Positions 21,554-48,585 of a stretch of DNA of 64,000 nt are shown here, piece by piece. The position numbers were made by a program, and so were the translations under genes. The notes under the pieces are model-generated. The model saw nothing but the letters and a program-made list of their open reading frames with translations. It had not been told where the DNA came from and did not search any database. Origin of the DNA: a virus. The stretch spans positions 1 to 64,000 of the IMG/VR virus record IMGVR_UViG_3300017917_001030; one strand, given 5' to 3'. Numbering within the stretch: position 1 is the stretch's first letter; every line of letters begins with the position of its first letter.

Positions 21554-21579
21554 ATGTGTATCAGTATGACGGAGTCTTT

Positions 21580-22449
21580 ATGGCAAAACTAAAAGTAAGC
21601 GAATTATTCTATAGTATTCAGGGCGAAGGCCGCTATATGGGCGTACCTTCAGTGTTTCTTCGTACCTTCGGATGTAACTTTACGTGCGATGGTTTCGGTA
21701 TGAATAAAGGTGAGAAGAGCAATGAAAGAAATGTTATTGCGATTAAAGCAGAAGAGTATTCTAATTACAGAGACCTTCCTCTTGTCCATACAGGTTGCGA
21801 TTCGTATGCTAGTTGGGATCCTCGTTTTAAGCATCTTAGCCCTGTTGTGGACACTGACAGCCTTGCCAATTCGATTGTGGATTTACTTCCGAACAAGGGG
21901 TGGCAAGACGAACATCTTGTAATTACGGGCGGCGAACCATTGCTTGGTTGGCAACGACAATTTCCCGAATTGCTTGAGCATGAGGTTATGAAACCTCTTA
22001 AAGAACTAACTTTTGAGACAAACGGTACTCAAGAGTTGACGGAAGAATTTACCAAGTATCTAGATGGTTGGACAGGTAGATTCTTATTGGGTGGAGGCAA
22101 ACGAGGAAAGAATAAACTTACATTCTCGGTTTCACCAAAGCTTTCTGTTTCCGGAGAGAAATGGGAAGATGCTATTAAGCCAGAAGTTATTTTGCAATAT
22201 TCCTGCGTTGGTTATGTTTATCTAAAATTTGTTGTAGCAACTCAACAAGATTTTGAAGAAGCAGAACAAGCAGTTAAAGAATATACTGCAGGCGGGTTTA
22301 ATGGGCCAGTATATTTGATGCCGTGTGGTGGCACGGAACAACTTTATAATATGAATAATCGAACCGTTGCAGAAATGGCAATGAAGAAGGGTTGGCGATA
22401 CTCAGATAGATTGCAAATTCCATTGTTCAAGAATGCATGGGGCACTTAA
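21580..22449 (+). CDS. queE: Radical-SAM 7-carboxy-7-deazaguanine synthase-like protein (QueE)
   Basis: 289 residues from ATG 21580, chosen because GGAG at 21570-21573 is ideally spaced and the predicted mRNA starts after the longer GTG option. QueE turns carboxytetrahydropterin into 7-carboxy-7-deazaguanine. The opening SELFYSIQGEGRYMGVPSVFLRT is typical, and the SAM-binding GGEP motif (TGGEPLLGW) is present. The iron-sulphur site is unusual: C32 and C36 keep the CxxxC start, but the third cysteine is displaced to about C73 in TGCDSYASWD after a Lys/Glu-rich insertion. The C-terminal VYLMPCGGTEQLY and a final LFKNAWGT are family-like. Confidence 0.85.
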   Translation: MAKLKVSELFYSIQGEGRYMGVPSVFLRTFGCNFTCDGFGMNKGEKSNERNVIAIKAEEYSNYRDLPLVHTGCDSYASWDPRFKHLSPVVDTDSLANSIVDLLPNKGWQDEHLVITGGEPLLGWQRQFPELLEHEVMKPLKELTFETNGTQELTEEFTKYLDGWTGRFLLGGGKRGKNKLTFSVSPKLSVSGEKWEDAIKPEVILQYSCVGYVYLKFVVATQQDFEEAEQAVKEYTAGGFNGPVYLMPCGGTEQLYNMNNRTVAEMAMKKGWRYSDRLQIPLFKNAWGT

Positions 22450-22931: not shown

Positions 22932-23624
22932 ATGTCATTTAACAAAACTAAGTGTGACCCTGAATTGGGTCGTAAGGTTCACGAACATCTAGTGGCAATG
23001 GGTGTAGAAACTCCCCTGACGCCAAACACATCTGCAATCGACCGCAAAGAGCGTATCAGTTTAATTGAAGGTCATTTTAAAGAAATCATGCAATTGCTTA
23101 ATCTTGATTTGACTGATGACAGTCTTATCGAGACACCTAAGCGTGTTGCTAAGATGTATGTTAATGAAATCTTCTGGGGACTCGACTATGACGCATTTCC
23201 GAAGTGTACGACAGTGGATAACAAAATGCACTATAATGAAATGGTTGTCGAAAGAAATGTCTCCGTACAGTCTAATTGTGAGCATCATTTTGTGGTCATT
23301 GATGGTTTCGCTACTGTGGCATATGTACCTAAGAATAAAGTATTGGGTCTAAGTAAAATTAATCGTATCGTTGAATATTTCAGTAAGCGTCCTCAGATTC
23401 AAGAGCGACTAACAGAACAGATCTTCCACACTTTGCAATTTATTCTAGGTACAGAGGATGTTGCAGTTATGATTGACGCACAACACTATTGTGTCAAGAG
23501 TCGAGGTGTCGAAGATGTTAATAGCTCTACAGTTACAGTAAGACTCGGCGGCGGATTTAAAACAGACCCTGCAGCACGTAATGAATTCTTGAGTATCGCT
23601 AGAATGGGCAAAGTATGTCAGTAA
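22932..23624 (+). CDS. folE: GTP cyclohydrolase I (FolE)
   Basis: 230 residues. It opens the GTP imidazole ring to make dihydroneopterin triphosphate, first step of both folate and 7-deazaguanine synthesis. Zinc ligands are C116 and H119 in SNCEHHF and C187 in [10 protein letters not shown]. The conserved [22 protein letters not shown] is intact. Its presence with QueD and QueE points to deazaguanine supply rather than folate. An aaggaagg RBS precedes the start; the 3' end overlaps the next gene by 10 bases. Confidence 0.95.
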
Positions 23625-24124
23625 ATGTAATGGTCGACCTTGAGACAATGTCCACAAGGTCTTATGCTGCCATTTGTTCAATTGGTGCAGTAAAATGGGA
23701 AGGTACTAAAATTATTGATACCTTTTATTGCACTGTTGATCTTAAATCTTGTAAAGATGCAGGTATGCATATTTCAAAAGATACTGTTAAATGGTGGTCA
23801 GAACAGAACAAAGAAGCTCTTCGCGAACTAACTAAAAACAATATCCCAATCAAAGAAGCATTGGATAAGTTTAGAGACTGGTTTGGAAGTAAGAGCCTTT
23901 GTGTCTGGGGCAACGGTGCAGTGTTTGACAATGTTATTCTAGCTAACGCATATTTTGTTCACGGAGAAGAACCTCCTTGGAAATGCTGGGATGATCGTTG
24001 CTACAGAACACTAAAGAATCTATTCCACTGGATTCCTGCTGACGAACGAGAAGGCGTTTACCACAACGCTTTAGACGACGCAATCTTTCAAACAAAACAC
24101 GCTATTAAAATACTAGGTGAATAA
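23615..24124 (+). CDS. DEDD-family 3'-5' exonuclease
   Basis: 169 residues. Exo I motif [16 protein letters not shown] (D8, E10), Exo II-like [11 protein letters not shown] (Asp in the middle) and Exo III-like [15 protein letters not shown] give a full RNase H-like DEDD set. The compact form matches the small Rv2179c-like or RNase T-like exonucleases of phages. Substrate, RNA or DNA, is not visible. It overlaps folE by 10 bases and shares its last base with the next ATG. Confidence 0.85.
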
Positions 24125-25488
24125 TGAACCTTTATAATAAAAGGATCGCTTTCTGTTTGAGCGATCAGCACACTATACCTCATGGTGGTCTTGGACAGTT
24201 TGCTAAAAGTTTTATTGAAACATTCACACCCCTTGGCTACAAGATTGATATTATTCTGGATAAGCCTGTCTCCAATTTAGAGTTCAAGGAATATCTAGAG
24301 TCAATCGGCGCACGCTTTGTCTGTAACGACAATCCTATTAGCTATTCTCGCCATTCTAAAATTTTTATGTTTGATGATTCTATTAATTACGAAAAGGTAA
24401 TTAACTTCAGAGAATCTATGATGAAGGCTCTAAGCGAAAACATCTACGATATCGTTATTTGTAACACGCTAGAATCTTTCCCTGCAGTTTATGCATTGTC
24501 CATTCAAAGGTCTGTACAAGTAATTTACTATACTCATAATGAGAGTATGGTGTTTCTGAACGATAGAACCTGGCGCAATGAATTTACAGAATCATTCAAC
24601 GAAACTTTTAATTCGTTAATGAGCGTGGCTGGCATTACAATCGCGACTCAGACTACACGAAATCTTATTGAGTTGTATGGTAAGAAGTTGCATAACGCCA
24701 AGCATCTTCCTATTCCTATGACCGAAAAGTCTTTGTTAGAACCGCATTACAAAAAGCGTGAAGGTGTGCTTTGGATCGGTCGTTGGGAACCTAGAAAAAA
24801 TCCCGAAGAGTTTATTCGTGTTATTAAAGAAACAGGATTGCCCGCAAAAGTTATTACCAATGCTAACGGTGCTAAGAAGTTTGAAGCAGCATTAAAAGAG
24901 ATTAATGCTACATACGAAATTAAGGCAGGGGTCTACGGAAAAGAGAAAGTGGATTTCCTAACATCCGCGCGGGTAGCATATAACCCTGCAATCAGAGAAA
25001 GTTTTGGTCTTGCATTTTATGAATGTATGGGGCATATGCCAACGGTTGCACTAAAAGGAATGTCCTGGTTAGAAAACTTTAATAGTAATTATTACTACAG
25101 CGCAGACCGTAAGGGTATATCTGACCTTGTAACTAAACTATATAATGAATTTGATACTGCTGAAAAATGGTACCAACTTATGACGGTTAATGGTCTCGTT
25201 GATGAAAATGAAAAGGGTATTCAGGCTTGGTTGGATTGTTTCAATAGTTTCGCACCTGCTGAATCCAATTCGGAAAAGGCAAAGATCAATGAATATGATA
25301 CAATCAAATATTCTGAATTCATTTCAATTCTAAATAGAAAAGAATTATCAATCGACGATGTTCGTTCTGTATTGACGAACAAGTATAAGTATAATATAAT
25401 CTATACTGATAGCAATACGTATCTATCTAAAGATCCTAATTTTAAACCACAAGAAGAAGCGCAAGGCTTAGAGGCATTATTTGCATGA
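24124..25488 (+). CDS. GT-B glycosyltransferase (GT4-like)
   Basis: 454 residues. N-terminal Rossmann domain starts IAFCLSDQHTIPHGGLGQFAKSF. The C-terminal donor domain starts GVLWIGRWEPRKNPEEF and carries the retaining EX7E signature in ESFGLAFYE. A C-terminal extension of about 90 residues past the GT core is unassigned. It overlaps the dpdA start by 4 bases (ATGA), so the two are translationally coupled. In T4, glycosyltransferases sugar-coat modified DNA bases; the coupling to dpdA suggests a comparable role, which is inference. Confidence 0.85.
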   Translation: MNLYNKRIAFCLSDQHTIPHGGLGQFAKSFIETFTPLGYKIDIILDKPVSNLEFKEYLESIGARFVCNDNPISYSRHSKIFMFDDSINYEKVINFRESMMKALSENIYDIVICNTLESFPAVYALSIQRSVQVIYYTHNESMVFLNDRTWRNEFTESFNETFNSLMSVAGITIATQTTRNLIELYGKKLHNAKHLPIPMTEKSLLEPHYKKREGVLWIGRWEPRKNPEEFIRVIKETGLPAKVITNANGAKKFEAALKEINATYEIKAGVYGKEKVDFLTSARVAYNPAIRESFGLAFYECMGHMPTVALKGMSWLENFNSNYYYSADRKGISDLVTKLYNEFDTAEKWYQLMTVNGLVDENEKGIQAWLDCFNSFAPAESNSEKAKINEYDTIKYSEFISILNRKELSIDDVRSVLTNKYKYNIIYTDSNTYLSKDPNFKPQEEAQGLEALFA

Positions 25489-26768
25489 AGACATTTGAAT
25501 ACGTTATTTCTGGACCAGCATATCTGCGTCTAGGTTCGGAGCAATGTAACGATCCCGAAACACTACAGATGATCTTGGATATGATGAATAACGTATGTCA
25601 TAACCAAAATAATCATACATTCTCTCTACTGTATAATGGTTTTACCGAAAAGAACTTTGGGCCAAAACTACAGAAGTTTAGACCAGCTATTAAGAACATT
25701 CATGCAGACTCAGGTGGTCTACAGATTGTTACTCGTGGTCTTAAGAATACACCTGAAGTTAGAGAAAAGGTTTATACTAATCAGGCAACGCATGCTGACA
25801 TTGGTATGGCTTTTGATGAAATTCCCGTAAAGGCAACTTCTACATCTGGTACATCTTCAAAGATTGATACCAAGCGTCGTTTTGCTGATATGGAAAATTT
25901 TGAGGAATATGCGAGGCAAACAGGTAAGAACGTTAGAGCGCAGATTGAAAAGTTTAACGAACTGAATAGTCAGTGCAGGCCTTTCGTTATTATGCATGGC
26001 TCGTCATTCGAGACATATCAGCTTTGGGCTAATACTATTCTTGAAGAAGTGGGTGATCTAAAGCATCGCATCGGCGGTGTTGCTATGGGATCTGCTGCTC
26101 TTGGTATGGGTCAGCTTGAGGATGTTAAGCGAGCATTTTATGTAACGGGTATGCCCTTTGAACGACCATTTCATCTTCACGTTCTAGGTGTTGGCGCACT
26201 TCGTCGTATGTTGCCTTATCTGTTGTTTAGCCAAACTGGTCTATATGACGGTATTGATATTTCGTATGACTCGACAACACATTCTATGTCATTGGACAAT
26301 GGACTATTTTATTTCTCACACTATAAAAAGTCTCCGGGCTCTATTTACGGCGGAACGTCTGTAAAGATGGGTAGAGAGTATTCTAATATTTACAGAACAG
26401 TGACTGAAGAAATTAATACAGTATGTGGAACAGACTATACGCCAGAGCAATATCATAAATTGATGAATACAGGTGTTGGCAAATACCTTGAAGAAGGTGG
26501 AACCTTTAAAGATATTATGCAAGCCCGACTAGGATTTATTCTTACAAACGTGCATAATTTTACAAAAGATGTTTCAGAACTTACAAAGTCGAAAGATCAA
26601 TTCTTAAAATTCTGCAGAGAAAAAGATTGCGAAAACGAATACGCTACATTGTTTGAAGTTAAGACACCCGATGACTTTAGACATTGGGAAACACACGTAG
26701 GCAAATATATGGATTCTGATCCAGTTAACACACAAGCACCAGTATCACTTGAGGACCTATTCACATGA
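25485..26768 (+). CDS. dpdA: DpdA-type DNA guanine transglycosylase (TGT-like)
   Basis: 427 residues. It resembles tRNA-guanine transglycosylase: D75 in HADSGGLQI (substrate-binding Asp), GGVAMGSAALG and the HLHVLGVGALRRMLPYL region, and D258 in YDGIDISYDSTT (nucleophile position). The TGT zinc CxCxxC site is not present, as in phage DpdA proteins that exchange guanine for a 7-deazaguanine in DNA. QueE, FolE and QueD nearby supply precursor. QueC is not in the window. Flanked on both sides by overlapping genes (4 bases each). Confidence 0.85.
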   Translation: MKTFEYVISGPAYLRLGSEQCNDPETLQMILDMMNNVCHNQNNHTFSLLYNGFTEKNFGPKLQKFRPAIKNIHADSGGLQIVTRGLKNTPEVREKVYTNQATHADIGMAFDEIPVKATSTSGTSSKIDTKRRFADMENFEEYARQTGKNVRAQIEKFNELNSQCRPFVIMHGSSFETYQLWANTILEEVGDLKHRIGGVAMGSAALGMGQLEDVKRAFYVTGMPFERPFHLHVLGVGALRRMLPYLLFSQTGLYDGIDISYDSTTHSMSLDNGLFYFSHYKKSPGSIYGGTSVKMGREYSNIYRTVTEEINTVCGTDYTPEQYHKLMNTGVGKYLEEGGTFKDIMQARLGFILTNVHNFTKDVSELTKSKDQFLKFCREKDCENEYATLFEVKTPDDFRHWETHVGKYMDSDPVNTQAPVSLEDLFT

Positions 26769-27211
26769 CAACCGGAACAACAAATACTCTTAAACTTGAT
26801 GAATTCAAACCACCAGCTGCATACTTGAAAAAGCGCAGCTTTATCTGGGTCACCTTCCAAAAAGAAGGCATTCACAAATATCCTGCTGCTGCAACTGATC
26901 CTAAACTAGCAACAGGTGATTGGCTCGATGTATCATTCTTAGGTACGCCTCATAGACATATCTTCCATTTTAAAGTTCAAATGGAAGTATTCCACAACGA
27001 TCGAGATGTAGAGTTTATCCAAGCTAAACGTATCATGGAGCGTTGGTACAGCGATGGCACGTTGCAGCTTGACTATAAGTCTTGTGAAATGATGGCAAAT
27101 GATTTGTATATGAAATGTATTTCTATGTGGCCTGATCGAGATTATGTTATTGAAGTTTCTGAAGATGGTGAGAATGGCTGCAAAATTTATTTTGAAAGGA
27201 TCGCTGTATAA
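26765..27211 (+). CDS. Putative T-fold (QueD/QueF-like) protein
   Basis: 148 residues. The segment GTPHRHIFHFKVQMEVFHND has paired His residues followed by beta strands. Further on, CEMMANDLYMKCIS and VIEVSEDGENGCKIYFE parallel the helix and final strand of QueD (AENLA...L and V.V.ET....A.Y). I infer a T-fold enzyme related to QueD or QueF, perhaps acting on the deazaguanine side chain. The assignment is from pattern only. It overlaps dpdA by 4 bases and the next gene by one, so it is firmly in the modification operon. Confidence 0.5.
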   Translation: MTTGTTNTLKLDEFKPPAAYLKKRSFIWVTFQKEGIHKYPAAATDPKLATGDWLDVSFLGTPHRHIFHFKVQMEVFHNDRDVEFIQAKRIMERWYSDGTLQLDYKSCEMMANDLYMKCISMWPDRDYVIEVSEDGENGCKIYFERIAV

Positions 27212-28410
27212 TGGGTAAGTTATTTTATATGGGTCTAGAACCCTATGAAGGTCGTTATACTTTGCAGCTTCAGCAATGGAGTGAAGAAGTATTTAAGCGA
27301 CGTGGCATTGACTATGAAATCATTACTGGCGACACACTTGATTCGTCTAAAGCTATTGTAACAGGCCAAGTTCTTGATGCACATGGCCGAAGCTATTATT
27401 CTTTGACTCAGATGGCTAACCTTGTTAAGAAAATGAAACAAGGTGAGATTACATACGAGGATACTATTTTCTTTGAAGATATGTTTACGCCTGGTATTGA
27501 ATCATTGCCTTATATCATGGATCAACTAGGTTATGAACATCGACCAAGTGTTTTTATTCGTTGTCTTGCTCAGACCATCGACCCCGATGATTTTGTCCAC
27601 GTATGGGATATGCAAGACTGGATGGGACATTATGAAAAGATGTGTGATGTATGGGTAACAGGTGTACTTGCATCTAATGAAGAAATGGTCGCCCATATGA
27701 AGATCGCTGGCTGGAAGGCCCCGATCTATAATATTAGTGGACTTGCTTTCGGTAAGAATGAAGTTCGTTCTAGAGTTCCCGTAATTAAACCTTTCAACGA
27801 ACGTAAACAACGAGTCGTGTTTGCTGCAAGATTCGATCAGGAAAAGCAGCCAGACTTTTATATGGATATTGTTGAGCGTTATCAGAACTTTTTCCCCGAT
27901 GTGGAATTTGCTGTTCTATCTGGCGGCCCACTAAGAAGTAATGATCCTAAGTATCTAGAACGTGCTCGCGCATTAGAAAAGACACATAACTTTAAGATTT
28001 ACGAGAATCTTAAAAAAGATGAATACTATGAAATTCTAGCTGATTCGCGAGTATTGTTTAATTGTGCATTGCAGGATTGGGTAAGTAATACAGCATCGGA
28101 AGCAGATGCGCTAGGAACGAATTGTTTGTATCCTGCTTATAGATCTTTCCCTGAAACATTCGCGAATGATAATAAGTGTCTTTACATCCCATGGTCACAA
28201 GATGACGCAATTAATAAATTGATTTATCTAATGAACCATGAAAGACCCAATCTAGGCAAGCTGTCTGATTGGACAGATAAAACTATTGATCGCTGTCTCG
28301 ATATTATGGGTCTAGGTACAAGTGGCCCTGAAGAGAATATGAAACATCATCACAAATGGTATCGTGGATTGAAGGATTATAGAAACCATGCAGCAGAAAC
28401 AAAATACTAA
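27211..28410 (+). CDS. GT-B glycosyltransferase, second of the dpdA operon
   Basis: 399 residues. The C-terminal donor-binding half starts RVVFAARFDQEKQPDFYMDI, followed by FAVLSGGPLRSNDPKYLERA and LADSRVLFNCALQDWVSNTASEADALG, a GT-B layout. The N-terminal half is less typical (KLFYMGLEPYEGRYTLQLQ). It starts on the last base of the preceding stop and overlaps galE by 23 bases. The donor could be a UDP-sugar supplied through the adjacent GalE; this is inference. Confidence 0.8.
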   Translation: MGKLFYMGLEPYEGRYTLQLQQWSEEVFKRRGIDYEIITGDTLDSSKAIVTGQVLDAHGRSYYSLTQMANLVKKMKQGEITYEDTIFFEDMFTPGIESLPYIMDQLGYEHRPSVFIRCLAQTIDPDDFVHVWDMQDWMGHYEKMCDVWVTGVLASNEEMVAHMKIAGWKAPIYNISGLAFGKNEVRSRVPVIKPFNERKQRVVFAARFDQEKQPDFYMDIVERYQNFFPDVEFAVLSGGPLRSNDPKYLERARALEKTHNFKIYENLKKDEYYEILADSRVLFNCALQDWVSNTASEADALGTNCLYPAYRSFPETFANDNKCLYIPWSQDDAINKLIYLMNHERPNLGKLSDWTDKTIDRCLDIMGLGTSGPEENMKHHHKWYRGLKDYRNHAAETKY

Positions 28411-29401
28411 AGCGGTTGTAGTTACGGGCTATGCAGGATACATCGGAGGACAAACCTGCATAGAACTAAAGAAGCAAGGTTACGAAGTATTTGGTATTGA
28501 TCGTCGCCTTGTTGAGCATACTACTCATTTTGTAGATGAGTTTGTTACTTCTGATTTTTGCGATCACGATTCATTGTCATTGATTAAAAAGGTCAAGCCC
28601 GTTGCTATTATACATTGTGCTGGTACTAGCCTAGTTGGCCCTAGCATGGTAATGCCTGAGGTATACTTTGAAAATAATGTGGCAAGAACAAATAGACTGT
28701 TGGAATTTGTTTCACGCTATGCTAAAGATGCAAAAATTATTTTTAGTAGTAGCGCTGCGGTATATGGTGATCCCGGTAATCAATCTAGCATAATTGAGGG
28801 AATGGATACCAATCCAATTTCACCATATGGTGAGTCTAAGTTGATGGTTGAAAAACTATTGCGTTGGTATAAGCAATGTCATGGTATTGATTATGTTTCA
28901 TTTAGATATTTCAATGCTGCTGGAGCTGACCCCGAAGGCAAGCATGGGCAAGAACCAAACGCAACACATATTATTGCCAAATTATTTGAAGCGGCATTGA
29001 ATAACACCGAATTCAATATGTATGGTTCGACTTATCCTACAAAGGATGGAACTTGTATTCGTGATTATATTCACGTAGCAGATATTGCACGTGCCCATGT
29101 TGCTGCTATAGACAAATATATTTCTGGGATATATAATTTAGGATCATTAACAGGCACATCTAATTTAGAGATGCAAATGCTTGTTGAAAAAACTATTGGA
29201 AAAGAAATTGTAACAGTATTCCAACATATGCGAGCAGGTGATCCTGCTAGATTAGTAGCGGATAGCTCAAAATTTAGATCGCTTGCAGACTGGACACCTC
29301 ATTATAGTAATGAGGATATTGTTAAAGATGCATACAAATGGTATACAAGTGACACGTACAAAACATTACAGAGGCCTTTGCGACGTTCATTCCCTCTATA
29401 A
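28388..29401 (+). CDS. galE: UDP-glucose 4-epimerase-like SDR (GalE)
   Basis: 337 residues, standard for GalE. NAD motif TGYAGYIGGQTC, the FSSSAAVYGDPG serine segment, and the YGESKL catalytic Tyr-Lys pair are present; FRYFNAAGADPEGKHGQEP and DGTCIRDYIHVADIARAH are near-diagnostic for GalE. It interconverts UDP-glucose and UDP-galactose. Its location in the dpdA/glycosyltransferase operon, not in the glycan locus 9 kb further on, suggests it feeds the two adjacent transferases. Confidence 0.9.
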   Translation: MQQKQNTKAVVVTGYAGYIGGQTCIELKKQGYEVFGIDRRLVEHTTHFVDEFVTSDFCDHDSLSLIKKVKPVAIIHCAGTSLVGPSMVMPEVYFENNVARTNRLLEFVSRYAKDAKIIFSSSAAVYGDPGNQSSIIEGMDTNPISPYGESKLMVEKLLRWYKQCHGIDYVSFRYFNAAGADPEGKHGQEPNATHIIAKLFEAALNNTEFNMYGSTYPTKDGTCIRDYIHVADIARAHVAAIDKYISGIYNLGSLTGTSNLEMQMLVEKTIGKEIVTVFQHMRAGDPARLVADSSKFRSLADWTPHYSNEDIVKDAYKWYTSDTYKTLQRPLRRSFPL

Positions 29402-29447
29402 ACATTCTGCACGTCTTTAAACTTGCTACCTTTAAAGGAGACTAGAG

Positions 29448-29978
29448 ATGGATAATCAAAATGATGTAGGACATATTTGGCGTTCTGCAAGACAATACAA
29501 ATACACAAGTACAAAAGAATATCACGATGCATTTCCGTGTGCATATCGTCAATGGCGCGCTGATAGCCATTGTAATTTAATCCACGGTTATAGTTTCAGT
29601 ATGAAGTTTTATTTTGGCACCGATAATTTAGATGCACGAAACTGGGCTGCTGATTATGGTGGTCTAAAAGACCTTAAGAAAGTTCTTGAAGATCAATTTG
29701 ACCATACATTGATTGTGGCGCAAGATGATCCTGAGCTTGAGACATTTATGATGTTGCAAGAAAAGAATATGGCTAAGATAATTGTATTACCCGCTGTCGG
29801 TTGCGAAATGCTGGCGGATCAATTATACAAGTATGTTAATGGAGTTTATATTCCTGAATACTGGGGCCCTGGAGAAGCAGAACGCCTATGGTGTTATCGA
29901 GTAGAAGTTCGTGAGACACAATCTAACATGGCTTTTAGAGAAGGTCATCGTGAATGGAATGAGGACTTATTCGCATGA
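29448..29978 (+). CDS. queD: 6-carboxytetrahydropterin synthase-like protein (QueD)
   Basis: 176 residues. The T-fold zinc site is visible in ADSHCNLIHGYSF. VDYGG-type sequence (ADYGGLKDLKKVLEDQFDHTL) and the final VEVRETQSNMAF complete the family pattern. QueD makes 6-carboxytetrahydropterin, the QueE substrate. The phage form has an N-terminal extension (HIWRSARQYKYTSTKEYHD). An aaaggag RBS precedes the start, and the gene overlaps the cupin by 4 bases. Confidence 0.9.
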   Translation: MDNQNDVGHIWRSARQYKYTSTKEYHDAFPCAYRQWRADSHCNLIHGYSFSMKFYFGTDNLDARNWAADYGGLKDLKKVLEDQFDHTLIVAQDDPELETFMMLQEKNMAKIIVLPAVGCEMLADQLYKYVNGVYIPEYWGPGEAERLWCYRVEVRETQSNMAFREGHREWNEDLFA

Positions 29979-30307
29979 AATATAATATCTATGATATCGG
30001 CGGCGAAGTTGTTAAGGACAACGAAACGTATGTTCTTAAAGACAACAAAGCTTTAAATAATCTTGTACTTAGTTCCACTGATCTAAAGCCCGGACAAAGT
30101 ACACGTGGGCATAGTCATCCCGGGCAGGAAGAAGTTTATTACTTTGTTTCTGGTACGGGTGAAATGGAACTGGATGACAAGAAATTTAATGTCCAGGGTG
30201 GGGATGTTGTTCTAATACCGGACGGTGCCTTCCATCGTGTTCACAACAGTTCAAAAGTTAACCCATTGTATTTTGTTTGTGTATTTGACGGCAAGCGAAA
30301 TCACTAA
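29975..30307 (+). CDS. Cupin-domain protein
   Basis: 110 residues, single cupin barrel. Motif 1 is GHSHPGQEEVYYFVSGTGEMEL (two His and a Glu as metal ligands) and motif 2 is GDVVLIPDGAFHRVHN. Small cupins act as sugar isomerases, dioxygenases or binding proteins. Coupled to queD by a 4-base overlap, it may act on a sugar or on the modified base, but the substrate cannot be read from sequence. Confidence 0.85.
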   Translation: MKYNIYDIGGEVVKDNETYVLKDNKALNNLVLSSTDLKPGQSTRGHSHPGQEEVYYFVSGTGEMELDDKKFNVQGGDVVLIPDGAFHRVHNSSKVNPLYFVCVFDGKRNH

Positions 30308-37486: not shown

Positions 37487-38494
37487 ATGAAAACAGCATT
37501 AATTACTGGTATCACTGGACAAGATGGTTCTTATCTAGCAGAACTATTATTGGAAAAAGGTTATAAGGTACATGGTATTATTCGAAGAAGCTCTTCAATC
37601 AATACCAAGCGCATTGACCACATCTACAACAATCCAAATCTAAAACTACATTATGGCGATGTGACCGACTCTTTATCACTAATGAATGTGATAAAGAAAC
37701 ATAAACCCGACGAAATCTATAACCTTGCGGCGCAAAGTCACGTTGCTGTTTCTTTTGAAACGCCTGAGTACACTGCTATGGTTGATGCTTTAGGCACGCT
37801 AAAAATTCTAGAAGCAGTTAGACTTTTGGATATGCAGGATAGTGTTAAAATTTATCAAGCATCTACTTCGGAACTATATGGACTCGTACAAGAAATTCCT
37901 CAAAAAGAAACAACACCATTTTATCCTCGATCTCCTTATGGTGTGGCTAAATTATATGGCTATTGGATCGTCAAGAACTATCGTGAAGCCTACAATATGT
38001 TTGCTTGCTCTGGTATTCTTTTTAACCACGAGTCCCCTCGCCGCGGACATAACTTTGTTACAAAGAAAATTGTAAATGGTTTAGAGGCAGTCAGCGCTGG
38101 TCGTCAAGATGTTCTTTTGCTAGGCAATCTTAACGCAAAGCGCGATTGGGGTCATGCTAAAGACTATGTCGAGGCAATGTGGTTAATCCTACAGCAGGAC
38201 ACTCCTGATGATTATGTGATTGCAACGGGCGAACAATATTCGGTTAAAGAGTTTGTTGAACGTTGCGCTCCTTATTATGGTTTAAAGATTCGCTGGGAAG
38301 GCGAAGGTGAAAACGAAATCGGTATCAACGAATATAACGGCAAAGTTGTTGTTCGAGTTGATAAGAAATACTTCCGACCAGCAGAAGTAGAAACATTGTT
38401 GGGCGATTCTACAAAGGCTAGAACTGTATTGGGTTGGACACCTAAATATGATTTCGACGCATTGGTTAAGGATATGTGCCTGAACTTTGAGTGA
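37487..38494 (+). CDS. gmd: GDP-mannose 4,6-dehydratase
   Basis: 335 residues. NAD(P) motif [47 protein letters not shown] and catalytic YGVAK in [12 protein letters not shown] are textbook Gmd. It makes GDP-4-keto-6-deoxymannose, the branch point to GDP-fucose and GDP-colitose. First gene behind the late promoter; aaggaac RBS. The fcl start follows 7 bases after the stop. Confidence 0.95.
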
Positions 38495-38501
38495 GGTTTT
38501 T

Positions 38502-39437
38502 ATGGAAAAGAATAGTAAAATATTTGTTGCGGGGCATCGAGGTTTGGTCGGCTCTGCGATTGTTAAAAAGCTACAAGAAGAAGGTTATACGAATCTAGTT
38601 CTACGTACACGCAATGAATTAGATTTGCGTGACCAACGAGCAGTTAAAAACTTCTTTAGTACAGAACGTCCCGAATATGTTTTTCTAGCAGCGGCAAAAG
38701 TGGGCGGCATTAATTATAATGCAACACATTCTGCAGACTTCATCTATGATAATTTAGCTATTCAGACTAATGTCATTGATGCAGCATATCGCAATGGTTG
38801 TCAGAAACTTCTTTTTCTCGGTTCGGCGTGTATCTATCCTAAGGTAACACCGCAACCTATTAAGGAAGAATATTTGTTAACTGCTCCCCTTGAACCTACG
38901 AATGAAGGTTATGCACTAGCAAAGATTGCCGGCTTGCGTATGTGCGAATACTACAGAAAACAATATGGGTTTAATGCCATTAGCTGTATGCCCGCAAACT
39001 TGTATGGCCCAAATGATAATTTTATCCCAGAACAAGGTCACGTTATTCCCGGTATTATTACTAAAATGTACCATGCAATTGCTGGCGGCCAAGACAGTAT
39101 TGAATGTTGGGGCGACGGTACACCTACTCGAGAATTCCTATATGTAGATGATCTTGCAGATGCATGCTTTTGGTTAATGCAGAATTATAACGAAAGCCAA
39201 TTTGTTAATGTTGGAAGCGATGAAGAATATACCATTAAAGATCTAGTAGAACTTCTTAAGAAAGAAATGTGCTTCAAGGGAGACATCGTTTGGAACACTA
39301 GTAAACCTAACGGAACTCCTAGACGTAAAATGGATAACAGCAAACTAAAGGCGCTTGGTTGGTCTCCTAAAGTAAAATTTGAGGAAGGTATCAAACGTAC
39401 TATTCAGTCATTTAAGAAAGAAAAGGGGATGCTATGA
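38502..39437 (+). CDS. fcl: GDP-L-fucose synthase
   Basis: 311 residues from ATG 38502 (GAGG RBS in the gap after gmd); a TTG at 38487 would overlap gmd and is less likely. Dual epimerase-reductase giving GDP-L-fucose. Motifs: VAGHRGLVGSAIV, FLAAAKVGGINYN, GSACIYPK, catalytic YALAK in NEGYALAKIAGL and MPANLYGPNDNF. Overlaps the next gene by 4 bases. The product could be used by the GT10 transferase at 41844. Confidence 0.94.
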   Translation: MEKNSKIFVAGHRGLVGSAIVKKLQEEGYTNLVLRTRNELDLRDQRAVKNFFSTERPEYVFLAAAKVGGINYNATHSADFIYDNLAIQTNVIDAAYRNGCQKLLFLGSACIYPKVTPQPIKEEYLLTAPLEPTNEGYALAKIAGLRMCEYYRKQYGFNAISCMPANLYGPNDNFIPEQGHVIPGIITKMYHAIAGGQDSIECWGDGTPTREFLYVDDLADACFWLMQNYNESQFVNVGSDEEYTIKDLVELLKKEMCFKGDIVWNTSKPNGTPRRKMDNSKLKALGWSPKVKFEEGIKRTIQSFKKEKGML

Positions 39438-40594
39438 GATGGCCTTTGATGGGTGAGACTATCACCTTTACCGACCGCCTAAAGATGGCGCATTTTGTTT
39501 TAACTGCAAAGCGATTCACGTATGGCGAGAAGGTAAAACAGTTTGAGGATGATTGGAATAAGTGGCTAGGTTCTTCCTATTCATTGTATGTCTCATCTGG
39601 TAGTACAGCAAACTTTTTACTTGTTGCTGCAGTTATGGAAATGTATGGTCTTAAGCCTGGCGATAAAGTATTGTTGCCCGCTTGCACTTGGATGACCAAC
39701 GTAGCACCTATTATTCAACTTGGGTTAACTCCTATTTTCTGCGATGTTAATATGCAGAATTATAGTTTTGATCTAGAAGATGCTAAGTACATTAGTACAA
39801 AGCATAAGGATATTAAACTTATTTTTGTATCGCATCTATTAGGTTTTTCCGGCGACAATGAAAAGCTAAGAGAAATTTTCCCTCACGCTTATGTCATAGA
39901 TGATGTATGCGAGTCTCATGGCTGTACTGATAGAGATAATGTTAAGCGTGGCGCACATAGTCTAGGTGCAACATTTAGCTTCTATTTTGGTCATCATATG
40001 TCTACGGTTGAAGGTGGTATGGTTTCTACATACAGCCCAGAACTGTATGATCTAATGCGAATGAAGCGTAGTCATGGCCTTGCCCGTGAGTCTATGAAGT
40101 ACGACAAATATGCAGCAACATATCCTGCTATTGATAAACAATTCTTGTTTGTTACAGATGGCTATAATTTTAGAAACCATGAAATCCCAGCGGTGCTAGG
40201 TATATCGCAGTTGAAACGTTTGGATGATATGATTTTCCAACGTCGTAGAAATTATGACAAATACGTCGAGATCGTAAATTCGAGACCTGATTTATTCTAT
40301 GGTCATCAGCATGACGTTTATAATAGTAGTTTCTGTTTTCCCTTCATCTGCAAGTCCAGAGAAACTATGTTAAGAATGAAAACTGCATTTTACGATAACG
40401 GTATCGAATATAGACCAGTTGTTAGCGGTAACCTATTGGCTCAGCCATTCTTAAATGGTTATAAAATGGTAACGAAGAAAGATGTAACTAACGCAGACAT
40501 TATCCATAGTCAAGGTGTTTACATTGGTAATAATCATTTCATTAATGATAAAGATATGGAATTCTTGAAAGAAGTTGTAAAGGAAATAAAATGA
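39434..40594 (+). CDS. DegT-fold PLP enzyme, likely ColD-like 3-dehydratase
   Basis: 386 residues. The DegT/DnrJ aminotransferase fold is clear (SSGSTANFLLVAA, PACTWMTNVAPI). The position that holds the PLP lysine in aminotransferases is histidine here: FYFGHHMSTVEGGM (H187-H188). This His-for-Lys change marks GDP-4-keto-6-deoxymannose 3-dehydratase (ColD). The substrate would be the Gmd product made two genes upstream, so the pathway fits 3,6-dideoxyhexose (colitose-like) synthesis. Overlaps both neighbours by 4 bases. Confidence 0.85.
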   Translation: MRWPLMGETITFTDRLKMAHFVLTAKRFTYGEKVKQFEDDWNKWLGSSYSLYVSSGSTANFLLVAAVMEMYGLKPGDKVLLPACTWMTNVAPIIQLGLTPIFCDVNMQNYSFDLEDAKYISTKHKDIKLIFVSHLLGFSGDNEKLREIFPHAYVIDDVCESHGCTDRDNVKRGAHSLGATFSFYFGHHMSTVEGGMVSTYSPELYDLMRMKRSHGLARESMKYDKYAATYPAIDKQFLFVTDGYNFRNHEIPAVLGISQLKRLDDMIFQRRRNYDKYVEIVNSRPDLFYGHQHDVYNSSFCFPFICKSRETMLRMKTAFYDNGIEYRPVVSGNLLAQPFLNGYKMVTKKDVTNADIIHSQGVYIGNNHFINDKDMEFLKEVVKEIK

Positions 40595-40938
40595 GTCTAG
40601 GACAAAGTATTGAAGATATTATTAAACAAACAGTTGATACAGTATTGAGTAAAGGCGAAATGCCTGATACTGAATATATTGCTACAGATAACCTAGGCGA
40701 GATTATTGAGAAGCTTGCTATCATTCATATTCGTATGTGGATGTTAGAAGACGCTATTCAAGCAGCTACTTCAGATGAACAGATCGCAGAACTAAAGCGT
40801 AAATGTGATATTTGCTTCAAGGTTAAGCGTCCCAAGTTTGTTCAAGCTATTAATGTTCTTGTAGATGATGCTATTGCAAATAACAAATCTTTGAGAGAAG
40901 ATTCAGTTAAATTGTATAAGGGAATTGACAATGCCTAA
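40591..40938 (+). CDS. Small helical protein of the glycan locus
   Basis: 115 residues, all helical. The central DNLGEIIEKLAIIHIRMWMLEDAI resembles small helical proteins of unknown function often found in polysaccharide gene clusters. CDICFKVKRPKF carries two of its Cys residues. No catalytic motif. Coupled to its neighbours by overlaps of 4 and 8 bases. Confidence 0.55.
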   Translation: MSLGQSIEDIIKQTVDTVLSKGEMPDTEYIATDNLGEIIEKLAIIHIRMWMLEDAIQAATSDEQIAELKRKCDICFKVKRPKFVQAINVLVDDAIANNKSLREDSVKLYKGIDNA

Positions 40939-41857
40939 GATTGTATTCTGGAATAATTTCCATAAGGGTGATATGCACACCCAAAAAGAATTTATCAGAC
41001 AAATTGTAACTGAGCTTGAAGGATATGAGTTTGGTTACATGCATGATAATCCAGAAAAACTTCTATTAGGTCTAGGTGTACCTACACTAGGTAGCCCATC
41101 TTCGCTAAGCCCACGTGAACCTTTCTACAAAGATGAGAACGATACTTTGTATGTTAATACTTGGGTGGGGTGTTTCTGGGACATATTCTGCGAGAATGGC
41201 GGAATCAATATGAATACCTTTATCGTACAATGGACAAAGATATTCGATTTCATTAATCAGGAGTGTGGTACTAATCTTAAAATTAAGAATAGAGAAGATT
41301 ATCTACCTCGTGTTGACTATGAACAGTTTGACGTAAACAATATCAATGAGTTTTTAGCAAACAATAAAAATAAAAAAGTCTTGGTCTGCAACAACGTTCC
41401 TCAGTCGGGACAATCATTTGCCTCATCTATGGGTGAGTACATTTTGCCTTTGGCGGAAGCAGATCAAGACACCCTATTCATCTGCACGAATAAAATAGAT
41501 ACCAACGGGCTATCTAATGTGCTATTTACTGATGACATTATCAAGTGTAAGGATGGGTGTGACCTGCCTGAGATATCTTATCTAAGCAGACATTGTGATG
41601 TTATTATTGGTAAGAACTCTGGCCCATATGTATTTTGTGAGACATATGATAACTTTATGGATGAGACAAAAACATTCGTCTCGTTGAATAAGAAGCATCC
41701 AGACTTTGATACTATTAAAGAGACAATGTCTAACGGTGTAGACTATAAGTGTTCATATACTACAGTTCCTATTTTTAATATCGAATCACCTTCTGCTGAT
41801 GACTGCGAACGTGTTTATAATGCTATTGTGAAGGCACTAGGTTATGAAGAAGCTTAA
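40931..41857 (+). CDS. Unassigned glycan-locus protein, possibly GT-B-like
   Basis: 308 residues from ATG 40931; a TTG six bases upstream is in frame but lacks an advantage. It starts KIVFWNNFHKGDMHTQKEF, and has a mid-protein KKVLVCNNVPQSGQSFASSM and a late SRHCDVIIGKNSGPYVFCET. Two Rossmann-like halves and the final SGP(Y) loop recall GT9-type transferases, but I see no certain match. Position among transferases suggests sugar transfer; this is inference. Confidence 0.5.
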   Translation: MPKIVFWNNFHKGDMHTQKEFIRQIVTELEGYEFGYMHDNPEKLLLGLGVPTLGSPSSLSPREPFYKDENDTLYVNTWVGCFWDIFCENGGINMNTFIVQWTKIFDFINQECGTNLKIKNREDYLPRVDYEQFDVNNINEFLANNKNKKVLVCNNVPQSGQSFASSMGEYILPLAEADQDTLFICTNKIDTNGLSNVLFTDDIIKCKDGCDLPEISYLSRHCDVIIGKNSGPYVFCETYDNFMDETKTFVSLNKKHPDFDTIKETMSNGVDYKCSYTTVPIFNIESPSADDCERVYNAIVKALGYEEA

Positions 41858-42713
41858 GCTAGGATTTACAGATACACATCCGCATCTTGCTCAATTCTTT
41901 TATTCTATTCTTAGTTCAAGATATGATGTAGAAGTTGTTACAGAAAATTTCGACTTTCTGATTTTTGGAGATGATAATTTTGGTAACAATAATTTAAATT
42001 ATTCCAAAGATGATTGCGTAAAGATCTTCTTTACTGGTGAGAATAGACGACCAGAAAATTTTGATTGCCATTACGCGATTTCCTTCGATCATAACTTTGA
42101 ACCGTGGCATTATAGATTGCCATTATTTGTCGTTTATATGTGGGCATGGGAACATATCCATAAGATGAAGTATGACTATAACTACATCTTCAATCCCGAA
42201 ATAAAAGACAAAACAGGATTCGCTTCTTTTGTTGTCTCGAACCCTGGGTGTAAAGAACGAAATGAGTTTTTTAATATTCTAAATTCTAGAAAACCTGTTG
42301 ACAGTGGAGGCAAACTGTTTAATAATATAGGTATGACTCTAGATGGGGAACAGGCAAAGATTGATTTTCTGTCATCCAGAAAGTTTAATATTTGTTTTGA
42401 ACCCTACGCCCATCCTGGTTATGTAACAGAGAAAATCCTTCACGCATTCTATGCAGGCACTGTTCCTATTTACTGGGGTAGCGAAACTATTGCATCGGAT
42501 TTTAATCCAAACGCATTTATTAATGCATACGATTTTAGTACACTTGAAGAACTTGCCGACTATGTAATGGAAGTAGATAGTGATGATCGCTTGTATAACG
42601 AAATGGTAACACAACCTAAGTTTACATCAAATATCCCTCCCTCCTATATGTTGTTGGACAATTTTTTAAATTGGTTTGACGCCGTAGTCTATAACAAAAT
42701 TTTACAACGATGA
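41844..42713 (+). CDS. GT10 fucosyltransferase-like enzyme
   Basis: 289 residues. The alpha-1,3-fucosyltransferase signature is present: KIFFTGENRRPENFDCHYAI, FASFVVSNPGCKERNEFF and FNICFEPYAHPGYVTEKILHAF, with GTVPIYWGS right after. GT10 enzymes use GDP-fucose, which Gmd and Fcl in this operon make. Cytosolic, no membrane segment. Overlaps neighbours by 14 and 4 bases. Confidence 0.9.
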   Translation: MKKLKLGFTDTHPHLAQFFYSILSSRYDVEVVTENFDFLIFGDDNFGNNNLNYSKDDCVKIFFTGENRRPENFDCHYAISFDHNFEPWHYRLPLFVVYMWAWEHIHKMKYDYNYIFNPEIKDKTGFASFVVSNPGCKERNEFFNILNSRKPVDSGGKLFNNIGMTLDGEQAKIDFLSSRKFNICFEPYAHPGYVTEKILHAFYAGTVPIYWGSETIASDFNPNAFINAYDFSTLEELADYVMEVDSDDRLYNEMVTQPKFTSNIPPSYMLLDNFLNWFDAVVYNKILQR

Positions 42714-43423
42714 AAATACATACATTTATTTTTAATTGGCGTGGCCAATATGATAAGACTAAACAAAAAGAACAACAACTAAAAGACCTTAACATTCCTT
42801 TTACCGTTATTAATAGTGATGAAGAACACGAAGAAGATGGTTGGGAAAATATAGGCGAAGAAAGTTATTTTACTGCCCAGTTCTTAAAGGCAGTTGAAAT
42901 ATTTTCTAAAACAGATGCAGATGCACTGTTCCATATTCAAGCCGATGCCAGTTTCGATAATTGGGGCGGATTGATCTACGATGCAGAAAAATACTTTGAA
43001 GAATATAATTGGGGCATTTATGCACCCAATGTAGATTACACATGGTATGATTCTAGTCGTGTTGATCTTAATGCGCTTGAACTAGAATATCCTAACCTTA
43101 AAATGGTATCCAACACTGATTGTACTTGTTGGTTCATTCATCGAGACATTATTAAAATGGCTTACGATAGAGGCGTAGACTTCTCGCCTTATAAGATGGG
43201 TTGGAGTTTTGATATTGTTTATACTGCTTTGGCTTACATGAGTCAAAGACCAGTTCTAAGAGATTATAACTATACTATTGACCATCCGAAAGGAACCAAT
43301 TATAATACAGAACAGGCTGAAAAAGAAATGCAGGATCTTTTCTTCTCATTGCCTAACGATATTCAAATTGCATTCGCATCTATAAAAGGCGATAAGAATA
43401 ACCTATACAATTACTACAAATAA
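42710..43423 (+). CDS. GT-A-like glycosyltransferase
   Basis: 237 residues. The order KIHTFIFNWRGQYDKT (beta-alpha opening), FTVINSDEEHEED and a DxD-like site in ALFHIQADASFDN is that of a GT-A nucleotide-sugar fold. CTCWFIHRDIIK and GWSFDIVYTALAYM follow the acceptor side. Exact family and sugar unknown. It overlaps the fucosyltransferase gene by 4 bases. Confidence 0.65.
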   Translation: MKIHTFIFNWRGQYDKTKQKEQQLKDLNIPFTVINSDEEHEEDGWENIGEESYFTAQFLKAVEIFSKTDADALFHIQADASFDNWGGLIYDAEKYFEEYNWGIYAPNVDYTWYDSSRVDLNALELEYPNLKMVSNTDCTCWFIHRDIIKMAYDRGVDFSPYKMGWSFDIVYTALAYMSQRPVLRDYNYTIDHPKGTNYNTEQAEKEMQDLFFSLPNDIQIAFASIKGDKNNLYNYYK

Positions 43424-43424
43424 T

Positions 43425-44348
43425 ATGCGATATGACTTTTTCCAATTAAACGATTTACTGTCTCAGAAGTTGCAGAGCGGTGAACCGTTTTCCTGCCTGC
43501 GTATAGATAATACTGCCGGCTATGTTATGGATTGTCTGTATAAAGGAGAGCTGCCATCTAAAGAGTTCTATAATGAAAACACTTTAGTAGAGGGTGGCGT
43601 ATATCCTAACATTATGGAGTATGCGTATAATACTGTTATACCCATGACACATGCTGCAATGAAGAAATGTGATATCCTTGGCTTTGTGGATATGTCTGAA
43701 AGCATTGCACGTAATACACAATTTGTTTCTGAGTTTGGTGAGAAGCCAAACTTCTTTGGTCACAATGATATGTTGATTATGGATCCTGGTGCATTGTTAA
43801 ATGTTACGGGTCATCACTATGTTAAAACACCTTGGCCTACATATCTAAAAGGCAAAAAGGTTCTCGTCATTAGTACCCATGCAGAAACAATACAACACCA
43901 ATGGAATAATATAGATAAGATTTGGGGCGATAAGAAAGACTCCATCGTTCCATTTGACCTTGTAGGTATTATTAAATCCCCGTATCATCCTGCAATGGAC
44001 GCACGGCAATATCCTGGTTGTGATACATGGGATAAGACTGTAGACTATATTATGCAGGAAATTAGACAATATGATTTCGATGTATTGTTAACTAGTTCTA
44101 CAACATCCTCTCCTATCTATGCAGTATTAGCTGCTGAAATGGGTAAGGTTGGTATACAAACCGGAGGTGTGCTGCAACTATGGTTTGGTATTCTAGGTTA
44201 TCGTTGGTCTGTGGAAGCAAACAACGGTTATAAACCATGGGCAACAATGTATAACGAACATTGGATGTACCCTCTTGAACAAGATGAGCCGGCGAATAGA
44301 AATAAGTACGCCTTTTTAGAAACAAACTATGCTTATTGGAAACGATGA
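43425..44348 (+). CDS. Glycan-locus protein, possibly GT-D-type transferase
   Basis: 307 residues. GEPFSCLRIDNTAGYVM sits where GT-D proteins have an LRxGDGE-type motif. KVLVISTHAETIQHQ and the late IQTGGVLQLWFGILGYRW resemble a family common in bacterial polysaccharide clusters. No membrane segment. I regard a sugar-transfer role as likely but not shown. Its stop overlaps the next ATG by 4 bases. Confidence 0.5.
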   Translation: MRYDFFQLNDLLSQKLQSGEPFSCLRIDNTAGYVMDCLYKGELPSKEFYNENTLVEGGVYPNIMEYAYNTVIPMTHAAMKKCDILGFVDMSESIARNTQFVSEFGEKPNFFGHNDMLIMDPGALLNVTGHHYVKTPWPTYLKGKKVLVISTHAETIQHQWNNIDKIWGDKKDSIVPFDLVGIIKSPYHPAMDARQYPGCDTWDKTVDYIMQEIRQYDFDVLLTSSTTSSPIYAVLAAEMGKVGIQTGGVLQLWFGILGYRWSVEANNGYKPWATMYNEHWMYPLEQDEPANRNKYAFLETNYAYWKR

Positions 44349-46836: not shown

Positions 46837-47846
46837 GAGTAAGTGATTGGATTGCTAATTATTTAAAATCTATTGGAGTGGAACGTGTTCATGGTCTAAT
46901 GGGTGGCGGTGCTGCTGGTCTTAATGATGGTTTTATTAAGCAAGGTATGCCATATATTTGTTACCATCATGAACAAGGTGCAGGCCATGCTGCAATCGGT
47001 GAAAGTAAATTTACCGGAAAAGTCTCTGTTGTTAATCCAACGACTGGGTGTGCTGGAACAAATTGTGCAACATCTGTTCTTAATGCCTGGCAAGATAGCG
47101 TGCCTGTTGTTTTTATTAGCGGTAATGTTCGTAAAAATACTTGTAGCAGATACATTAATAAACAGCGTAAAACAAACATCAGAAAATATGGCATTCAAGA
47201 ACATGATGTAGTTGAGACCTACAAGTCGATGACAAAATACTCTGTGTTTATTGAAAGCCCCGAGGATGTTTGTTACGAACTACAAAAAGCAATATTTATT
47301 GCAACCTCTGATCGTAAGGGCCCTGTTTGGCTAGATATTCCTAGTGATGTTCAAAGTGCGTCTATGCCTGAAAATCCAAGAACATACAATGATCTATCTA
47401 TTAATATAGAGGGCAATTCTGAAATTTTTGAAACTTATAAAGACCTAATTAATAAGGCAGAAAGGCCTGTTGTTCTTGCAGGTTACGGTATTAGACAAAG
47501 TGATACTGTAGAAAATTTTGTAGAGTTTATTGAGCAATACAATATTCCCTATGTTAGTACATATGGTGCTCGAGATTATACAGAGTTCAATCATCCTCTT
47601 AATATTGGCGCAGTGGGTATTAAAGGAAGTAGAGCAGGTAATTTTGCGATGCAGAATGCTGATCTATTATTAATTCTAGGATGTAGTTTAAATAGTAGCG
47701 TAATTGGTTATGATCCTGCGCAGTTTAGTCCAAAGAGTTATAAAATACTAGTAGATATAGATTCCAATGAAATGGAAAAAGATATTATTAAAGTGGACAA
47801 AAAGTTCTGTTCCTCATTAGACAAATTTTTCGCGGGGATGAAATGA
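46833..47846 (+). CDS. TPP-dependent enzyme, N-terminal half (Pyr and middle domains)
   Basis: 337 residues from ATG 46833 (GGCGGAG RBS, ATGA overlap). Acetolactate synthase-like: the catalytic Glu lies in HHEQGAGHAAIGESKFTGK, followed by NPTTGCAGTNCATSVLNAWQ and a middle domain with AERPVVLAGYGIR. It ends before the PP domain, which is the next gene. Together they resemble the acetolactate-synthase-like proteins of bacterial O-antigen clusters, including YerE, which adds a two-carbon branch to a 3,6-dideoxy-4-keto sugar. Confidence 0.88.
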   Translation: MRVSDWIANYLKSIGVERVHGLMGGGAAGLNDGFIKQGMPYICYHHEQGAGHAAIGESKFTGKVSVVNPTTGCAGTNCATSVLNAWQDSVPVVFISGNVRKNTCSRYINKQRKTNIRKYGIQEHDVVETYKSMTKYSVFIESPEDVCYELQKAIFIATSDRKGPVWLDIPSDVQSASMPENPRTYNDLSINIEGNSEIFETYKDLINKAERPVVLAGYGIRQSDTVENFVEFIEQYNIPYVSTYGARDYTEFNHPLNIGAVGIKGSRAGNFAMQNADLLLILGCSLNSSVIGYDPAQFSPKSYKILVDIDSNEMEKDIIKVDKKFCSSLDKFFAGMK

Positions 47847-48583: not shown

Positions 48584-48585
48584 TA

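What the first reader, a model, noticed from the sequence alone, without database searches (positions are those of the whole stretch)
23615..30307. DpdA operon with two glycosyltransferases and GalE: possible glycosylated 7-deazaguanine DNA
Exonuclease, GT-B, DpdA, T-fold-like, GT-B and GalE genes overlap successively (1-23 bases), followed by QueD and cupin (4-base overlap). FolE and QueE are just upstream. DpdA with FolE/QueD/QueE means 7-deazaguanine in DNA. Coupled transferases and a UDP-sugar epimerase suggest a sugar is then attached, as T4 does to hydroxymethylcytosine. I know of no described base of this kind. QueC is missing here and must come from elsewhere.
Basis: inference. Interest (0 to 1): 0.85.

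Follow-up and report, generated by a model that had tools for sequence, protein, structure and literature searches.

The report
Phage operon for sugar-bearing deazaguanine DNA
This virus and hundreds of relatives carry a gene set that swaps guanine in their DNA for a modified base, and a glycosyltransferase family found almost only beside that base-swapping enzyme probably hangs a sugar on it, which would be a DNA base we found no report of.

Summary
In a T4-like virus record of 130,602 bases, QueE, FolE, an exonuclease, GT1, DpdA, a T-fold protein (Tf), GT2, GalE, QueD and a cupin form a tight run with 1-23-base overlaps. DpdA is a DpdA2-type transglycosylase with intact motifs. GT1 and GT2 are GT-B/GT4-type enzymes with conserved donor residues. 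Tf has the QueD fold but lacks QueD's catalytic residues.

New here: GT2 is tied to DpdA rather than to glycan genes. In two samples of GT2-bearing viral contigs a DpdA lies nearby in 71/71 and 69/70, with Tf in all. The same set occurs in five unrelated isolated phages. In three bacterial isolates GT2 adjoins a DpdA. QueC is absent from isolates with DpdA, Tf and GT2, and present in those with DpdA but neither. So QueC is probably not 'from elsewhere': the pathway appears to run on CDG or a Tf product, not preQ0.

Best explanation: DpdA inserts a CDG-derived base and GT2, optionally GT1, glycosylates it in DNA. Chemistry is untested; linkage and sugar are unknown. The library held no report of such a base.

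The parts
21556..22449 (+). QueE, CDG synthase (likely start ATG 21580)
   Evidence: phrog_2076 4.7e-55; weak TIGR QueE models
22932..23624 (+). FolE, GTP cyclohydrolase I
   Evidence: PF01227 8.2e-61; NF006824 above cut-off
23615..24124 (+). 3'-5' exonuclease (Rv2179c-like), probably accessory
   Evidence: PF16473 1.1e-46; absent between FolE and GT1 in several relatives, e.g. L001, L010, L013
24124..25488 (+). GT1, GT-B/GT4-type glycosyltransferase, optional second transferase
   Evidence: PF00534 1e-4; ESFGLAFYE = E-x7-E and GRWEPRKNPEEF motifs; alignment A6
25485..26768 (+). DpdA (DpdA2 family), DNA guanine transglycosylase
   Evidence: TIGR00449 3.3e-7; 30-39% identity to relatives in isolated phages; DSGGLQ and SYDS invariant
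26765..27211 (+). Tf, QueD-fold protein without QueD's catalytic residues; candidate CDG-processing enzyme
   Evidence: AlphaFold2 pLDDT 90.7; best PDB match E. coli QueD 4.7e-5; phrog_17812; alignments
27211..28410 (+). GT2, DpdA-linked GT-B glycosyltransferase
   Evidence: PF00534 8.2e-7; GT-B model; linkage to DpdA and Tf; conserved residues
28388..29401 (+). GalE-type UDP-sugar 4-epimerase
   Evidence: TIGR01179 285.5 bits, cut-off 262.3
29448..29978 (+). QueD, CPH4 synthase, catalytic Cys42 and Asp85-His86 kept
   Evidence: PF01242 4.3e-16; alignment A5
29975..30307 (+). small cupin, accessory or unrelated
   Evidence: PF07883 4.4e-17; in only 3 of 56 GT2 loci

Best explanation
The operon makes a glycosylated 7-deazaguanine in the virus's own DNA. 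FolE, QueD and QueE turn GTP into 7-carboxy-7-deazaguanine (CDG). There is no QueC, so CDG is not turned into preQ0; the QueD-like enzyme Tf probably acts on CDG or a derivative instead. DpdA exchanges guanines in DNA for this base. GT2, a dedicated GT-B transferase, then puts a sugar from a UDP-sugar (balanced by the operon's GalE) on the 7-position group or its derivative, and GT1, where present, adds a second or alternative sugar. Shown here: gene content, intact motifs, the Tf fold, the near-invariant GT2-Tf-DpdA linkage and the lack of a detectable QueC. Inferred from established pathway knowledge: the steps to CDG and the base exchange. Inferred without direct support: the Tf reaction, the acceptor, the sugar, the linkage and the order of steps.
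For: GT2-selected viral contigs with enough upstream sequence: Tf 71/71, a DpdA 71/71; second, partly overlapping sample: Tf 70/70, DpdA 69/70. GT2 pairs with DpdA2 and with DpdA-large. Five unrelated isolates (BUCT-ZZ01, ACP17, X1, PA5oct, Phosso) have DpdA, Tf and GT2, and DpdA2 phages Moby and ValKK3 have no PF00534 gene at all. Three bacterial isolate genomes have GT2 beside DpdA-large, two with Vut_1-like transporter genes. GT donor-site and catalytic-type residues conserved. QueC pattern. No PF00303 enzyme in G000, BUCT-ZZ01, ACP17 or X1. GMP reductase or phosphoribosyltransferase genes in several related operons could recycle guanine released by exchange.
Against: No sugar on DNA has been measured in any member. 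CDG offers only a carboxylate as acceptor, and 7-deazaguanine would offer none, so the linkage is unclear. GT2 has no specific homology to known DNA glucosyltransferases; AGT is only one of many GT-B fold matches. Tf's reaction is unknown. Devosia and Azospirillum show GT2 and DpdA without Tf nearby, so Tf is not always needed.
Confidence: 0.66

Rival explanations
1. The DNA carries an unglycosylated 7-deazaguanine (CDG, or 7-deazaguanine if Tf is a CDG decarboxylase), and GT1/GT2 act on some other acceptor during infection.
For: Six Tf-bearing isolates lack GT2, so a sugarless Tf pathway probably exists. Unsugared dCDG and dDG are, from memory, reported in phages (Cui et al. 2023, not held).
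Against: It gives no reason why GT2 sits with DpdA in nearly every locus, with several DpdA subfamilies and in bacteria.
Confidence: 0.17
2. The transferases work on glycans (host surface or virion) together with the sugar-nucleotide cluster at 37487-53232.
For: The window carries GMD, GDP-fucose synthase, DegT aminotransferases and a GT10 fucosyltransferase; all 8 records of the window's lineage searched have the GT10 gene.
Against: None of the 12 searched DpdA-large/GT2 records nor the 5 isolates has the GT10 gene, yet all have GT2 with Tf or DpdA. The only PF00534 genes of BUCT-ZZ01, ACP17 and X1 lie in the DpdA locus.
Confidence: 0.06
3. The host supplies QueC (and reductase) activity; DpdA inserts preQ0 or preQ1 and GT2 modifies that, or the DNA simply carries preQ0.
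For: Most control bacteria have QueC, including Synechococcus elongatus, the species of BUCT-ZZ01's host. The preQ1 amine would be a plausible acceptor.
Against: QueC over the cut-off in 0 of 5 isolates with DpdA, Tf and GT2 against 3 of 3 with DpdA2/DpdA-large but neither (Fisher p 0.018, few lineages). Hosts that have QueC also have QueD and QueE, yet the phages keep those.
Confidence: 0.08
4. The GTs glycosylate a hydroxylated pyrimidine in DNA, as in T4, independently of DpdA.
For: T4 AGT is among the fold matches of GT2; sugars on hydroxypyrimidines are the known precedent.
Against: No thymidylate synthase/dCMP hydroxymethylase family (PF00303) gene in G000, BUCT-ZZ01, ACP17 or X1; linkage is with DpdA.
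Confidence: 0.03

Closest known systems
DpdA2 7-deazaguanine pathway of Vibrio phages (nt-1, 6E351A, ValKK3)
   Same: FolE, QueD, QueE and a homologous DpdA2; DNA modification measured for nt-1 (dPreQ0, PMC6884629) and 6E351A (about 15% dPreQ1, PMC12028318)
   Different: Those phages have QueC (ValKK3 tested) and no Tf or GT2 in ValKK3; here QueC is absent and Tf, GT2, GT1 and GalE are present
T4 hydroxymethylcytosine glucosylation (AGT, BGT)
   Same: Proposed logic: a GT-B enzyme adds a sugar to a modified base in DNA; AGT is among the GT2 fold matches
   Different: Purine analogue instead of a pyrimidine, base made by transglycosylation rather than at the nucleotide level, no PF00303 enzyme, no specific sequence relationship found
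Phage dCDG and dDG modifications and DpdL (Cui et al. 2023; recalled, not read)
   Same: 7-deazaguanine DNA not requiring preQ0; Tf could be DpdL or a relative
   Different: No sugar described there; identity of Tf with DpdL not tested
QueD / 6-pyruvoyl tetrahydropterin synthase (for Tf)
   Same: T-fold, best PDB match, His triad kept
   Different: QueD catalytic Cys and Asp-His missing; a separate intact QueD is in the same operon
Glycosylated queuosine in animal tRNA (manQ, galQ; from memory)
   Same: Sugar on a 7-deazaguanine nucleoside
   Different: tRNA, not DNA; acceptor is the cyclopentenediol of queuosine, which no gene here would make

Membership tests
DpdA2 DNA guanine transglycosylase | Homology to the Vibrio-phage DpdA2 family and to TGT | tested here: met
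   About 32% identity over 94-96% to Vibrio phage proteins; TIGR00449 3.3e-7
DpdA2 DNA guanine transglycosylase | Two TGT aspartate motifs intact | tested here: met
   D75SGG and SYD262S invariant in 18 aligned proteins; 64 of 64 viral copies
DpdA2 DNA guanine transglycosylase | Base exchange on DNA | not testable with these tools
   Needs an assay; known only for relatives (PMC6884629, PMC12028318)
GT4-type GT-B glycosyltransferase (GT1, GT2) | GT-B fold | tested here: met
   GT2 model matches BshA, MshA, glycogen synthase; GT1 by PF00534 only, weakly
GT4-type GT-B glycosyltransferase (GT1, GT2) | Donor-site Arg/Lys and E-x7-E type motif | tested here: met
   GT2 R207, K212, E297 invariant, with D289 instead of the first Glu in the window protein; GT1 ESFGLAFYE
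T4-type hydroxymethylcytosine glucosylation | dCMP hydroxymethylase family enzyme (PF00303) | tested here: not met
   None in G000, BUCT-ZZ01, ACP17, X1
Canonical preQ0 DNA pathway | QueC encoded with FolE, QueD, QueE and DpdA | tested here: not met
   No PF06508 match in the 130,602-base record, which may be incomplete; none over the cut-off in 5 isolates with DpdA, Tf and GT2
QueD (for Tf) | T-fold | tested here: met
   Model pLDDT 90.7, best match E. coli QueD
QueD (for Tf) | Catalytic Cys and Asp-His | tested here: not met
   Absent from Tf alignments, present in the operon's QueD
DpdL CDG decarboxylase (for Tf) | Homology to published DpdL and decarboxylation of CDG | not tested
   Paper not held; recalled lead only

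The most novel reading that the evidence does not exclude
A widespread, unreported class of DNA hypermodification: glycosylated 7-deazaguanine built from CDG without preQ0, using a QueD-derived enzyme (Tf) and a dedicated DNA-deazaguanine glycosyltransferase family (GT2), in several unrelated phage groups and in some bacterial genomes, with the sugar varied by exchangeable GalE-, DegT- and GT1-type genes.
Probability: 0.5. Interest if true: 0.92.

Novelty: new variant of a known kind. Interest (0 to 1): 0.83.

Why it matters
Sugars on phage DNA bases are known on pyrimidines; a sugar on a deazaguanine in DNA would be a new chemistry and a further layer of protection from nucleases. It would also assign functions to families now unnamed (phrog_10773, phrog_17812, GT2) and could supply new DNA-glycosylating enzymes.

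Tried and rejected
Megablast of the region against phages gave nothing. Sequence and profile searches of PDB chains gave no significant hit for Tf, DpdA2, GT2 or DpdA-large; fold comparison and NCBIfam helped. phmmer of DpdA2 against the roughly 500-aa proteins upstream of Tf found nothing, though profile comparison shows them related. The idea that the GTs belong to the fucose cluster was tested and disfavoured. A hydroxymethyl-pyrimidine acceptor was disfavoured. Phosphoribosyltransferase in the window's own record: none. PF00534 misses the GTs of PA5oct and Phosso at genome scale, so the GT2 profile was used. The empty DpdA2 profile search had no positive control and is not relied on. Promoter and terminator scans were near chance. 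The exonuclease and cupin were considered and set aside as probably accessory.

Full report
OBSERVATION. The window is the first 64 kb of a 130,602-base virus record with T4-like portal, major head protein, sheath, late sigma factor, UvsW and gp46 genes. The claimed genes are all there, with family hits for QueE, FolE, exonuclease, two GT-B transferases, GalE, QueD and cupin and overlaps of 10, 1, 4, 4, 1, 23 and 4 bases. DpdA has no Pfam match but matches TIGR00449 (tRNA-guanine transglycosylase, 3.3e-7) and 70 phage records, mostly Vibrio and Stenotrophomonas.

IS IT REALLY DpdA? Yes, by homology. The Vibrio relatives are Schizotequatroviruses, whose DpdA is the DpdA2 family; nt-1 DNA contains dPreQ0 (PMC6884629) and 6E351A DNA has about 15% of dG modified, with the mass of dPreQ1 (PMC12028318). 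The motifs DSGGLQ and SYDS, matching the two TGT aspartate regions (my knowledge of TGT), are invariant across 18 aligned DpdA2 proteins including ValKK3 and Moby and present in 64 of 64 viral-contig copies.

SYNTENY. Among DpdA-selected and GT1-selected viral loci, the order uvsW - sigma - QueE - FolE - (Exo) - GT1 - DpdA - Tf - GT2 - GalE - QueD - gp47/46 is kept almost throughout; some lack the exonuclease or GT1 at its place.

THE GT2-Tf-DpdA LINK. Of the 80 best loci, 71 have enough upstream sequence; all 71 have Tf and a DpdA, 70 of them a different, about 500-aa protein ('DpdA-large') with an LGDSGGFQ and usually an SFDCASPF motif. The nine others are cut by the contig end just upstream of GT2. 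DpdA-large and DpdA2 are related by profile comparison (E 1.4e-8 over 285 columns). A second sample chosen with a wider GT2 profile, which shares some contigs with the first, gave Tf 70/70 and DpdA 69/70. DpdA-large also occurs beside QueC and QueF genes in Vibrio phage 2.275.O, which fits a DpdA role.

UNRELATED ISOLATES. BUCT-ZZ01, ACP17, X1, PA5oct (with Paride and others) and Phosso all carry Tf, a GT2-family transferase beside or near it, FolE and/or QueE, and a DpdA2 or DpdA-large; in Phosso the DpdA-large is elsewhere in the genome. GT2 shares E10, R15-Y16-T17, R207, E211-K212-x-P214 and E297 across them. Within BUCT-ZZ01, ACP17 and X1 the only PF00534 matches lie in this locus. In cellular genomes GT2 is rare: 11 loci, of which the MAG contigs may be viral; in the isolates Devosia naphthalenivorans, Methylobacterium frigidaeris and Azospirillum isscasi GT2 lies by a DpdA-large, with Vut_1/queuosine-precursor-transporter-like genes in Devosia and Azospirillum.

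QueC. It is over the cut-off in none of the 5 isolates with DpdA, Tf and GT2 (X1 has one sub-threshold match elsewhere) and in 3 of 3 with DpdA2/DpdA-large but no GT2 (Moby, ValKK3, 2.275.O); none in the window's record. With so few lineages this is suggestive (p = 0.018). Among 20 viral records searched, one (G007) had a short match just over the cut-off. Six other Tf-bearing isolates lack GT2; among them only D479 has a QueC-like match, short and far from Tf. Their DpdA was not identified with my profiles.

Tf. AlphaFold2 gives a confident T-fold (pLDDT 90.7) whose best solved match is E. coli QueD. It keeps H37 and H63-x-H65 in all aligned isolates, as a QueD zinc site would, but not QueD's catalytic Cys or Asp-His, which the operon's own QueD keeps. 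An invariant Cys107 lies in its SCE motif, role unknown. I infer a different reaction on a related ring, most simply CDG processing. Whether it is the decarboxylase DpdL of Cui et al. 2023 could not be tested (paper not held). If it is, the base would be 7-deazaguanine with no side chain, which would make an ordinary O-glycoside impossible and is the chief weakness of the glycosylation model.

TRANSFERASES. GT2 is modelled as GT-B (pLDDT 80.5), nearest to BshA, glycogen synthase and MshA, with T4 AGT further down the list; general GT-B similarity does not identify the acceptor. GT1 has the classic E-x7-E motif. A GalE-like gene accompanies GT2 in 44 of 56 loci with enough sequence; some others have DegT-type or nucleotidyltransferase genes, so the sugar may vary. 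GT1 is in 7 of those 56, so it is optional.

RIVALS. The fucose-type sugar cluster is confined, among records searched, to the window's lineage, so GT2 does not depend on it. No PF00303 enzyme is present in G000, BUCT-ZZ01, ACP17 or X1, so a hydroxymethyl-pyrimidine made that way is unlikely as acceptor. The main live rival is a sugarless CDG or deazaguanine base with the GTs acting elsewhere; it leaves the linkage unexplained.

VERDICT. GT2 and Tf belong to the DNA-deazaguanine pathway (about 0.9). That the DNA carries a glycosylated deazaguanine is the best explanation (0.66). Literature searches found no report of one, within an open-licence library that lacks key papers, so novelty is provisional.

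Noticed in passing
window 37487-46836 and beyond: Large nucleotide-sugar cluster: GDP-mannose 4,6-dehydratase, GDP-fucose synthase, two DegT-type aminotransferases, a class I/II aminotransferase and a GT10 fucosyltransferase; found in all 8 records of the window's lineage searched and in none of the others. Possibly a host-surface or virion glycan island.
   Followed up: partly
L157:4093-4554, L060:12589-13158, L087:9841-10422, L046:9377-10486, L182:10544-11002: Phosphoribosyltransferase and GMP reductase-type genes recur in related DpdA operons, as if to salvage guanine released by base exchange.
   Followed up: partly
L186, L187, L190: Bacterial isolate genomes (Methylobacterium, Devosia, Azospirillum) with GT2 next to DpdA-large; Vut_1-like transporter in two; recombinase-like genes nearby in Devosia and Azospirillum suggest mobile islands.
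   Followed up: partly
L055:6016-6567 and 53 other loci: Conserved 166-183-aa protein of unknown function upstream of Tf in DpdA-large loci, no Pfam match.
   Followed up: no
L184:7001-7903, L185:7337-8221: With GT2 and Tf, a roughly 300-aa protein with a DSGAFS or DSGAHS motif; the first weakly matches NCBI's DpdA model (3.7e-4): perhaps a third DpdA subfamily.
   Followed up: partly
L173:6542-7423, L166:8230-9381: Tf fused to other domains: to an endonuclease-VII-like domain in Chryseobacterium phage MA9V-3 and to an unassigned N-terminal half in Vibrio phage Bakedbeans.
   Followed up: no
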